Shown here: positions 39,566-63,719 of the stretch, piece by piece
Numbering within the stretch: position 1 is the first letter of the stretch
How the letters are laid out: the number at the start of each line of letters is the position of its first letter
DNA from: Arthrobacter sp. ATA002
GTDB lineage: Bacteria > Actinomycetota > Actinomycetes > Actinomycetales > Micrococcaceae
Assembly: GCF_026898095.1 (NCBI RefSeq)
Contig: NZ_CP114015.1
Coordinates: forward strand, 3,534,001 to 3,598,000
Reading direction: 5' to 3'
Length of the DNA: 64,000 nt
Position numbers and translations under genes: made by a program
The notes under the pieces: model-generated
Seen by the model: only the letters and a program-made list of their open reading frames with translations
Told to the model about the DNA's origin: nothing
Database searches by the model: none

Positions 39566-40402
39566 ATGGTTGCGTACGACATCGACACCGCCGCTGTGAT
39601 GGACGCGGTCCGGAAGACGCAGGCAGAGCTCAGGGTTCTGTCCGCTGTTCCCGCCGGCCTGCAGCGCAGCGCCGACGCCGTGGAGACCGCCCTTGGTGCC
39701 GGCCGCGTGGCCCGCGTCTTCACCGCTTTCAGCGCGGGGGAACTTCTGCCGGATCTGCGGTCGCTCCTGGCCCGCGCCGAAGGTGCAGCGCTGGGCGTCA
39801 CGGAGGCGGTCACCGAGTATTTGCGCGCCGACGAAGAAATGAGGTCCCGGGCCGAAGCTGCCGCGGCCGCCGTTCCTGACGCAGCCGGAAAACGGCCGGA
39901 CGCAGCCCCGCCGCCCGCAGTTCTTCCCGTCGTCCCGCCGGCGCGGCGGGCTCCCGCGGAGTGGCTGTTTCGTCCGGCACTTCCGGGGCGGCCGCCCATC
40001 ATCGTTGCCCGTGACCTGATGCTGCGGCTGTATTTCCCATGCCCGGGGAGCCCGCCGCGCCCCGGCGGCTGGTTTCCCCGGTGGCCCCGCCCGGGCTGCC
40101 CGCCCCACGGCTGGTTTCCACGGTGGCCGGAGCCGGCCTATCCTCCCGGCAGCCGGCTTCCCTGGCTGCCGGGTCCGGCCTATCCTCCCGGCTGTTGGTT
40201 TCCCCGGTGGCCGGAGCCGGGTATCCCGCCCCGCGGCAGGTTCCCCTGGTGGCCGGCCAAGCCTCTTCCGGGCCTGTTCCCGGATCCGGGGTACGTTCAT
40301 CACTGGCCGCTGGAGGTCAAGCCGCTGCCCTTGGCCGTACCCCTGATTGGATATGAAACCCTTCCCGGAGGAAACTCCGGCGGAAAGTGGGGCATGACGT
40401 GA
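39566..40402 (+). CDS. WXG100-like helical protein with five 14-residue Trp/Pro repeats at the C-terminus
   Basis: A 278-residue protein. Residues 1-115 are Ala/Glu/Leu-rich and read as a two-helix hairpin of the size and composition seen in WXG100-like/DUF6507 proteins (AYDIDTAAVMDAVRKTQAEL, then LPDLRSLLARAEGAALGVTEAVTEYLRADEE). A Pro/Arg linker follows. Residues 168-237 are five tandem 14-residue units with consensus GWFPRWPxPxxPPG, encoded by 42-nt DNA repeats. No signal peptide is seen. Third codon positions stay G/C-rich through the repeats, so this frame is real. It overlaps the next helical gene (GTGA), implying a co-translated pair. Function is unknown. Confidence 0.7.
   Translation: MVAYDIDTAAVMDAVRKTQAELRVLSAVPAGLQRSADAVETALGAGRVARVFTAFSAGELLPDLRSLLARAEGAALGVTEAVTEYLRADEEMRSRAEAAAAAVPDAAGKRPDAAPPPAVLPVVPPARRAPAEWLFRPALPGRPPIIVARDLMLRLYFPCPGSPPRPGGWFPRWPRPGCPPHGWFPRWPEPAYPPGSRLPWLPGPAYPPGCWFPRWPEPGIPPRGRFPWWPAKPLPGLFPDPGYVHHWPLEVKPLPLAVPLIGYETLPGGNSGGKWGMT
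40067..40276 (+). repeat. Five tandem 42-nt coding repeats
   Basis: Units begin at 40067, 40109, 40151, 40193 and 40235, exactly 42 nt apart. They share the core GGCTGGTTTCCCCGGTGGCC with substitutions. Unit 3 is the most diverged (SRLPWLPGPAYPPG) and unit 5 degenerates at its end. They encode the Trp/Pro repeats of the 39566 protein. Confidence 0.85.
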
Positions 40403-40907
40403 GCGCGTCCATCGATCTAAGCGGCACAGCCCGTCTGCCTGCCGCGCCGGAACTCCTCAAAGCCGCTGCAGCGCTCCGAAAGCACACTTCCGACGCCGGT
40501 GAAACCATGCAGCTGGCCCATTCCGCCTGGTCCTTCCTGGCCGGGGCTTATACGGCCCCTGAACAGCAGCAGGTGCACCGCGCGATGGACAGGCCGCGGC
40601 ATGACGGACAAGCCCTCGCCGCCGCGGGTTCCCGTGCGGCGGAAGCCCTCGAGACATTCGCCGCCGCCGTCGAAGGCATCCGCCGGCAGTGCCTGGAGCT
40701 GCAGGACGATATGGAACAACTGCAGGAGAGGGAGCAGCCCGTCGCCGGTGGAGGTGTCCAGCCGGCAGGGATGGTTACTCCCTAACCCTTGCCGGGCAGC
40801 TTTTGCAGACGCGCGCCAATCAGCTGGCCCGGGACCTGACGGCCGCCGAAGACCACTGCATCCGTGCTCTTGAAAAGCTGGCGGGCATGTCTGTTTCACC
40901 ACGTTAA
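40399..40907 (+). CDS. WXG100-like helical partner protein, frameshifted
   Basis: About 169 residues after repair. It is all-helical by composition (Ala, Glu, Gln, Leu), with a central AHSAWSFLAGAY resembling a WxG-type turn and a long helix AAEALETFAAAVEGIRRQCLELQDDMEQLQ. The frame breaks after QPAG. One G added to the GGG run at 40768-40770 continues as DGYSLTLAGQLLQTRANQLARDLTAAEDHCIRALEKL to a stop at 40905. It starts GTG 40399 inside the upstream gene's stop (GTGA). The pair resembles small exported or ESX-type helical substrates, but no secretion ATPase is nearby. Function is unknown. Confidence 0.65.
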
Positions 40908-62861: not shown

Positions 62862-63719
62862 TTAGCTGACGCGGACGAAGCTGGCTCCGCCGAGGTAGGA
62901 GAGCGGGTGCAGCACGGTGTTCATGCCGTCGAAGCCGCCGCTGATGACCTGGCCGTTGCCCACATAGATGGCGACGTGGCCGGCGGTGATGACGAGGTCG
63001 CCGGGCTGGGGCGAGCCAACAACAGAGCCGTACGCGTAGAACTGTCCCGGTGCGAGGTCGCCAACGGACTTGCCGACGGAACGCAGTGCCTTCTCGACCA
63101 TGGCGGTGCAGTCCTGGGCAACGCCGATCTGGCTGTAGGCGGAGGCCACGAGGGCGGCACCTACGCCGCTGGCCACGGGGGCCGGAGCGGGAGCGGGTGC
63201 GGCCGGTGCCGGTGCCGGCGTAGTGGCTGCGGGCGCTGCGGCCGGTGCGGTGTAAGCGTTGGTGCTCACGGCGGCCTGCTGGGTCTGCACGGCTGCGGCC
63301 TGCTGGGCCTGGGCCTGCTGGGCCTGGGCCTGCTGGGCCTGGGCAGCTGCCTCTTCCTGTGCAACTGCGGCGGCGGCGGCAGCAGCTTCTTCGGCCGCAA
63401 CCTGTGCGCGGTAGTCGGCGCCGGAAACCGAGGAAACGGACTCAAGCGTTGCCAGTTCGAACGGTGCCTGCGCCGAAACGGACACGGCACCCGTGGAGGT
63501 GACCGCACTCAGCGGAGTGGCTTCGAGGGCCTGGCGGTCGGTGTTGACGGCGGCCTGGGCGGGCAGGCCCGCTGCGAGGACGAGGCCGGAAGCGGCGACG
63601 ACGACGGCGGCCTGGCGGCCAAGGGTTCCAGCGTTGGAAGTAACGGCCCGGGACAGTGCTGAAATTGGGCTCGTCTGAGTGGTGGCCGCGCGACGGCGGC
63701 CGTGAGCTACTGATGACAC
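62862..63719 (-). CDS. Secreted NlpC/P60 family protein with Gln/Ala coiled linker
   Basis: A 285-residue exported paralog of the next gene with a near-identical signal region (LGRQAAVVVAASGLVLAAG, cleavage near AQA). Residues about 103-150 form an Ala/Glu/Gln-rich helix with QAQ repeats, then a Pro/Ala linker. The catalytic domain has QDCTAMVEKAL and AGHVAIYVGNGQVISGG. At the third active-site position the usual His is Ser (VISGG), unlike the paralog. It starts at GTG 63719 with GAGAGG upstream, directly below a c-di-AMP riboswitch, so synthesis is tied to c-di-AMP level. Confidence 0.87.
   Translation of the reverse strand: MSSVAHGRRRAATTQTSPISALSRAVTSNAGTLGRQAAVVVAASGLVLAAGLPAQAAVNTDRQALEATPLSAVTSTGAVSVSAQAPFELATLESVSSVSGADYRAQVAAEEAAAAAAAVAQEEAAAQAQQAQAQQAQAQQAAAVQTQQAAVSTNAYTAPAAAPAATTPAPAPAAPAPAPAPVASGVGAALVASAYSQIGVAQDCTAMVEKALRSVGKSVGDLAPGQFYAYGSVVGSPQPGDLVITAGHVAIYVGNGQVISGGFDGMNTVLHPLSYLGGASFVRVS

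What the first reader, a model, noticed from the sequence alone, without database searches (positions are those of the whole stretch)
39566..40907. WXG100-like protein with five perfectly phased 14-residue Trp/Pro repeats, coupled to a second helical protein
Five units of 42 nt encode the consensus GWFPRWPxPxxPPG after a helical N-terminal domain. The next gene starts in its stop codon and encodes another WXG-like helical protein. Two Trp and six or so Pro per unit suggest a rigid polyproline-type rod that could bind carbohydrate, peptidoglycan or aromatic ligands. No ESX ATPase or toxin is adjacent. This is my best candidate for an undescribed system in the window: a repeat-tailed, possibly exported or surface-exposed pair.
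Basis: partly seen in the sequence, partly recalled or inferred. Interest (0 to 1): 0.7.

Follow-up and report, generated by a model that had tools for sequence, protein, structure and literature searches.

The report
Type VII secretion pair, tryptophan-proline tail

Summary
The repeats and the coupled pair are real. G1 (39566-40402) is a DUF6507 protein (39.7 bits, cut-off 25) with a 168-residue Trp/Pro tail. G2 starts in G1's stop codon. Its frame is broken here, but 17 of 40 testable genes in this window are split (2 of 37 in the control), so an assembly error is likely; relatives hold intact G2 of 168-185 aa. In 245 family genomes DUF6507 and EccC co-occur (54 both, 5 and 5 alone, 181 neither); 26 genomes have DUF6507 within 15 kb of eccC. 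At this syntenic locus some relatives carry a 605-621-aa G2; the two scanned contain Abhydrolase_8. The window's clade keeps only G2's N-terminal helical domain, shows no following lipoprotein-like ORF, and has a cationic Trp-rich tail; the sister group has acidic Trp-poor tails. 14 of 14 tailed G1 end WG(L/M)T. Best reading: an ESX-type export pair whose remaining cargo is the G1 tail. Export, dimerisation and tail function are inferred, not shown. New variant of a known kind.

The parts
39566..40402 (+). G1: DUF6507 protein with Trp/Pro tail, 278 aa
   Evidence: Pfam PF20117, E 8.1e-10, residues 1-111; ORF
39566..39898 (+). DUF6507 helical hairpin domain
   Evidence: Pfam match residues 1-111; AlphaFold helices 8-25, 28-43, 47-102
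39818..39832 (+). YxxxD motif, residues 85-89
   Evidence: Same position in 10 of 10 tailed G1 compared
40067..40273 (+). Five 14-residue Trp/Pro units (last one 13 residues)
   Evidence: TRF row 40061-40256; shuffle test; unit borders by eye
40388..40399 (+). C-terminal W-G-M-T of G1, overlapping the region just upstream of the G2 start
   Evidence: WG(L/M)T in 14 of 14 tailed G1 found through their N-terminal domain
40399..40785 (+). G2: helical WXG/PPE-like protein, first part (128 aa, GTG start overlapping the G1 stop)
   Evidence: ORF; relatives
40782..40907 (+). Out-of-frame stretch matching the third helix region of intact G2 relatives
   Evidence: ORF in another frame; tblastn of this piece to relatives; frame broken in this assembly

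Best explanation
G1 and G2 are a translationally coupled pair belonging to the ESX-type (T7SSa) secretion system. Inferred mechanism: the G1 hairpin with its YxxxD arm packs against the longer G2 hairpin, as PE packs on PPE or Lap1 on LXG domains; the dimer docks on EccC and is exported. In most DUF6507 places examined the next gene is a larger protein; at this locus in related species it is a 605-621-aa protein, shown to contain Abhydrolase_8 in the two scanned. In the window's clade that part is absent, and so is the lipoprotein-like ORF that follows G2 in the sister group. What would be exported is the unstructured G1 tail, a cationic Trp/Pro-rich segment ending in WG(L/M)T. Shown here: family, predicted folds, co-occurrence with EccC, synteny, absence of the hydrolase part, conservation and charge of the tail. 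Inferred: dimerisation, export, tail as cargo, lipoprotein as immunity protein.
For: DUF6507 membership over cut-off. DUF6507 and EccC in 245 family genomes: 54 both, 5 and 5 alone, 181 neither, Fisher p 2.7e-42, not corrected for relatedness; 26 genomes with a DUF6507 gene within 15 kb of eccC. In the genus, G1 matches (12 of 29) and G2 matches (19 of 29) all fall among the 22 of 29 genomes with EccC over cut-off. 38 of 42 DUF6507 places fetched are followed by a 387-965-aa ORF. Conserved locus in nine relatives. Abhydrolase_8 in the long G2 of G010 and G022. YxxxD in 10 of 10 tailed G1. Predicted hairpin and PPE-like folds. Tail dN/dS 0.26-0.37 in frame against 1.11-1.71 in the other sense frames.
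Against: No experiment; the complex could not be predicted. YxxxD with Tyr is found in only 11 of 29 untailed DUF6507 proteins. G1 has no WXG motif in its domain and G2 matches no WXG100 or LXG model over cut-off. Fold matches are tied with unrelated helical proteins and Foldseek found nothing at E <= 0.001. EccC occurs without DUF6507 in 5 genomes and the reverse in 5. In this strain's assembly both eccC and G2 are split. The phased antisense frame of the tail also gives dN/dS 0.38-0.55.
Confidence: 0.6

Rival explanations
1. The pair is not itself exported but serves as a cytoplasmic targeting or adaptor pair for other ESX effectors, with the tail as a disordered tether and WG(L/M)T as a docking peptide.
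For: G2 has no effector part in this clade. A Lap1 protein is reported as not itself secreted although needed for export of its LXG toxin (PMC9600955, passages). Many genomes of the genus hold further G2-like long proteins elsewhere.
Against: The rest of the DUF6507 genes examined mostly have their own long partner next door (38 of 42), and the Trp/Pro tail has no counterpart in those untailed proteins.
Confidence: 0.2
2. One reading: a surface-exposed rod that binds wall or carbohydrate through its Trp residues.
For: Trp- and Pro-rich composition, variable repeat number, probable export.
Against: No binding domain was recognised; the Trp-poor acidic tails of the sister group occupy the same position, so Trp is not a general requirement. 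Compatible with the export model rather than opposed to it.
Confidence: 0.12
3. A decaying remnant of an effector cassette.
For: G2's frame is broken in the window, the hydrolase part is missing and only 251-484 bp separate G2 from the next gene in this clade.
Against: Intact short G2 of similar size in relatives, dN/dS 0.25-0.42 among short G2 pairs, kept synteny, and a window-wide excess of split genes (17 of 40 against 2 of 37).
Confidence: 0.06

Closest known systems
DUF6507 (PF20117) genes paired with a long downstream gene in Micrococcaceae
   Same: Same N-terminal family, same gene order, short or overlapping junction
   Different: 37 of 42 places have at most 73 residues beyond the domain, and the partner is usually 387-965 aa; here a 168-residue tail and a short partner
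Lap1/Lap2 with LXG toxins (T7SSb)
   Same: Small helical partner encoded with a longer helical targeting domain; FxxxD or YxxxD-type motif at the end of the second helix (PMC9600955, passages)
   Different: Bacillota system; no LXG model matched; no toxin part in this clade
PE/PPE pairs (mycobacterial ESX)
   Same: Hairpin plus longer hairpin of about 170 residues; G2 of G019 aligns with PPE41 over 162 residues at 3.4 A, Z 11.1
   Different: No PE or PPE Pfam match; BAR domains align equally well
Trp/Pro-rich antimicrobial peptides (indolicidin, tritrpticin)
   Same: Trp, Pro and Arg together with net positive charge (class named in PMC6017362, search listing only)
   Different: Those are short free peptides; here a long tail on a secretion partner, activity untested; resemblance is of composition only

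Membership tests
DUF6507 (PF20117) | Score over the curated cut-off | tested here: met
   39.7 bits, cut-off 25
T7SSa (ESX) substrate pair | EccC ATPase in the same genome | tested here: met
   TIGR03924 562 bits, over cut-off, on two frames
T7SSa (ESX) substrate pair | YxxxD/E export motif after the second helix | tested here: met
   Residue 85 in 10 of 10 tailed G1; only 11 of 29 untailed DUF6507
T7SSa (ESX) substrate pair | EccC-dependent secretion | not testable with these tools
   Needs an eccC mutant
WXG100 (PF06013) | WXG motif at the hairpin and a match over cut-off | tested here: not met
   No W-x-G in the G1 domain; best G2 match 11.8 bits in a relative, cut-off 27.3
WXG100 (PF06013) | Hairpin fold | tested here: inconclusive
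   3fav_C Z 8.8, 88 residues, 2.1 A, tied with unrelated helical proteins
LXG domain | Pfam match over cut-off | tested here: not met
   No LXG model listed for the window proteins at E <= 10 or for relatives at E <= 1
PE/PPE | PPE-like long hairpin fold of G2 | tested here: inconclusive
   PPE41 Z 11.1, tied with BAR domains; no PE/PPE Pfam match
Abhydrolase_8 effector cassette | Abhydrolase_8 domain in the second gene | tested here: not met
   Found in L058, L059 and L062 long G2, not in four short G2 of relatives nor in the window's pieces

The most novel reading that the evidence does not exclude
In one Arthrobacter clade the active part of a type VII effector pair has moved from the long partner to the small targeting partner: the hydrolase part and its putative immunity lipoprotein are gone, and the small partner carries a cationic Trp/Pro/Arg-rich tail that acts on membranes or walls in the manner of Trp/Pro-rich antimicrobial peptides, delivered through ESX with the help of a C-terminal WG(L/M)T signal.
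Probability: 0.14. Interest if true: 0.75.

Novelty: new variant of a known kind. Interest (0 to 1): 0.45.

Why it matters
It ties DUF6507, for which a full-text search of the held library found no paper, to the ESX secretion machine through co-occurrence and proximity to eccC. It also offers a natural series at one locus, with and without the hydrolase part and with acidic or cationic tails, so that the roles of targeting domain, cargo and tail can be tested separately in a soil bacterium.

Tried and rejected
Pseudogene reading: set low because relatives are intact and because split genes are common in this window. The control covers 37 comparisons in four relatives; its 2 splits are one gene seen twice.

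Chance or wrong-frame repeats: rejected by the shuffle test and by dN/dS. The phased antisense frame also gives 0.38-0.55; I take that as a by-product of shared codon positions, not as an antisense gene. Acidic tails of the sister group evolve faster (0.43 and 0.59).

Conserved C-terminus as only the ribosome-binding site of G2: partly kept. The GGAA(A/G)GTGGGG string looks like such a site, and AGG makes up 5.7% of Arg codons in the genes counted. But G016 uses CTA for Leu (0.6% of Leu codons) and G023 lacks the string, and both still encode WGLT. I favour a peptide-level constraint as well, moderately. The 15 cassettes were collected with that string, so they cannot be used to count how often the ending is kept; the 14 were found through the N-terminal domain.

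Tail search in the family: 4 of 395 genomes match the Trp/Pro tail of G003 at E <= 0.001; the related tails of G024 and G007 are missed, so that search is not exhaustive. Profile searches of PDB sequences gave only weak coiled-coil-like matches. NCBIfam gave nothing over cut-off. The lipoprotein-like ORF following G2 had no Pfam match of note; the pattern used to find it was written after seeing the ORFs. A recurring LMLR-like motif in several tails was not tested statistically. The G2 tree puts short forms in two places, one node with support 0.036, so two independent losses are only suggested.

An earlier count said 40 of 42 DUF6507 places have a long next gene; recounting one search gives 38 of 42 (exceptions: second L108 cassette 185 aa, L130 297 aa, L135 none, L136 100 aa). 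The 40 regions were chosen mainly for long open frames and hold 42 places, against 146 places listed; they are not a random sample.

Literature searches: DUF6507, 0 papers; WXG100 with DUF1023, 0; type VII secretion with Arthrobacter, 16, of which 15 listed, none on this pair by title; WXG100, polymorphic toxin, actinobacteria, proline-rich, 0; ESX-4, Streptomyces, WXG100, substrate, 6, listing only; tryptophan, proline, repeat, WXG100, type VII secretion, 5, listing only. Passages were seen in PMC9600955, PMC3935865 and PMC11217815; no paper was read whole.

Full report
Observation. The 42-bp array is real (TRF 40061-40256, 4.7 copies, 73% matches) and lies in frame in the 278-aa ORF 39566-40402. 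The lag-14 identity of the 80-residue tail stretch (29) exceeds every value in 20,000 shuffles at lags 5-29 (maximum 26). The units are phased but degenerate. G2 begins with a GTG overlapping the TGA of G1. The frame from that GTG ends at 40785; the part up to 40907 is in another frame.

Assembly quality. Predicted proteins of 68 kb of relative G003 around the same locus were compared with the window: of 40 with at least 60% coverage, 17 lie on more than one frame, including the BCCT transporter next to G2 (G2 itself is not among the 17). The same test on 17-18 kb of four other relatives gave 2 of 37 (one gene, twice). The genome's own eccC is on two frames as well and its completeness is 94.24% against 99-100 for the other 28 genomes of the genus searched. 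The break in G2 is therefore most likely technical. Intact G2 frames of 168-185 aa exist in relatives.

Family of G1. Residues 1-111 match DUF6507 (PF20117, 39.7 bits, cut-off 25). In 245 family genomes, 59 have DUF6507 at E <= 0.001 (56 over its cut-off) and 59 have EccC at E <= 1e-150: 54 both, 5 and 5 alone, 181 neither, Fisher p 2.7e-42 without correction for relatedness. In 26 genomes a DUF6507 gene lies within 15 kb of eccC. In the genus, EccC is over cut-off in 22 of 29 genomes; matches to G1 (12 of 29) and to G2 (19 of 29) all lie in that set.

Usual architecture. Among 42 DUF6507 places in 40 fetched regions, chosen mainly for long frames, 38 are followed by an ORF of 387-965 aa and 37 have at most 73 residues beyond the domain. 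Four places with 270-346 residues beyond it end in RGRWGLT and belong to the cassettes described next; one (L130, below the Pfam cut-off) has 149.

The locus. VIT family protein, aldo/keto reductase, G1, G2, BCCT transporter (Pfam names) is the order in G019, G002, G003, G024 and G007; in G023 it is spread over two contigs; in G018, G010 and G022 the reductase is missing. The fetched G001 region does not show it. G002's contig equals A. gandavensis NZ_VTFU01000006.1 by length and match, so the genus is Arthrobacter. G010 has two tandem cassettes, one with a 620-aa G2 and one with a 185-aa G2. The 620-aa G2 of G010 and G022, and a 588-aa relative elsewhere in G007, carry Abhydrolase_8; four short G2 proteins scanned do not. 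The short proteins correspond to the N-terminal helical region of the long ones.

Two groups. In 6 of 6 cassettes of the window's clade (G000, G019, G002, G003, G024, G007) the tail has 4.9-7.4% Trp and charge +6 to +12, G2 is short, and no lipoprotein-like ORF was found within 1.3 kb. In 9 of 9 cassettes of the sister group (G018, G010 twice, G022, G021, G009 twice, G020, G016) the tail has 1.1-1.8% Trp and charge -12 to -27; six have a long G2 (605-621 aa; G020's is cut by the locus end) and three a short one; a lipoprotein-like ORF follows in 7 of 9, the other two loci ending soon after G2. G023, whose G1 is cut by a contig end, was left out of this count. A short G2 therefore also occurs with acidic tails. 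This is essentially one split in the tree, so the link between cationic tail and loss of the hydrolase is suggestive only.

Selection. Tail dN/dS in frame is 0.37 (G002/G003), 0.26 (window/G002) and 0.30 (G024/G007), against 1.11-1.71 in the other two sense frames; the phased antisense frame gives 0.38-0.55. Over seven pairs the tail gives 0.22-0.59, the domain 0.19-0.31 and G2 0.17-0.42. Synonymous change is near saturation in some pairs with the window. By eye, five units are present in the window, G002 and G003, and two in G019.

C-terminus. 14 of 14 tailed G1 proteins found through their N-terminal domain end in WG(L/M)T. The nucleotide string at the junction occurs in 12 of 395 family genomes, all in this genus, at 14 places, each a G1/G2 junction. 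G016 and G023 keep WGLT with other nucleotides. A ribosome-binding site for G2 and a peptide signal are both compatible. C-terminal signals of some WXG100 proteins that bind EccC/EssC are described in PMC11217815 (passages).

Structure. G1 helices span 8-102, pLDDT 96-98 from residue 11 to 100; the tail is mostly under 50. The hairpin aligns with several WXG100 structures, best 3fav_C at Z 8.8, 88 residues, 2.1 A, level with unrelated helical proteins. The G2 of G019 gives three helices, mean pLDDT 87, and aligns with PPE41 at Z 11.1, 162 residues, 3.4 A, level with BAR domains. Foldseek found nothing at E <= 0.001 for either. These matches agree with, and do not prove, a T7SS fold. YxxxD sits at residue 85 in 10 of 10 tailed G1; of 29 untailed DUF6507 proteins 11 have it with Tyr, while the Asp is conserved in at least 90% of 37 aligned sequences.

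Mechanism. The best-supported model is an ESX-type targeting pair, G1 supplying the export arm and G2 the longer helical scaffold, as proposed for PE/PPE and for Lap1 with LXG toxins (PMC9600955, passages). Dimerisation, export and the role of the tail as cargo are inferences. The resemblance of the cationic tail to Trp/Pro-rich antimicrobial peptides is of composition only (PMC6017362, listing only).

Verdict. A real, conserved, lineage-specific variant of a known kind of secretion pair; the tail's function is open.

Noticed in passing
window 1-64000: 17 of 40 genes testable against relative G003 are split over two or more frames, so frame breaks in this window should not be read as biology.
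   Followed up: yes
G000:C1:2962974-2966569 (outside the window): The genome's eccC lies on two frames (open frames of 723 and 752 aa), against one frame in relatives.
   Followed up: partly
L058 4907-6473 and 8372-9447, L057 10824-12455: Repeated lipoprotein-like ORFs and partial copies follow G2 in the sister group, as expected of duplicated immunity genes; function untested.
   Followed up: partly
window about 40010-40030 (G1 residues 149-155) and tails in L050, L051, L052, L057, L058: A short RDLMLR-like motif recurs in otherwise unalignable tails, up to five times in one protein.
   Followed up: no
window 63297-63344: A perfect 15-bp tandem repeat, 3.2 copies.
   Followed up: no
L055 end and L056 start (G023): A contig break falls inside the Trp/Pro tail of this relative, so its tail could not be read whole.
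   Followed up: no
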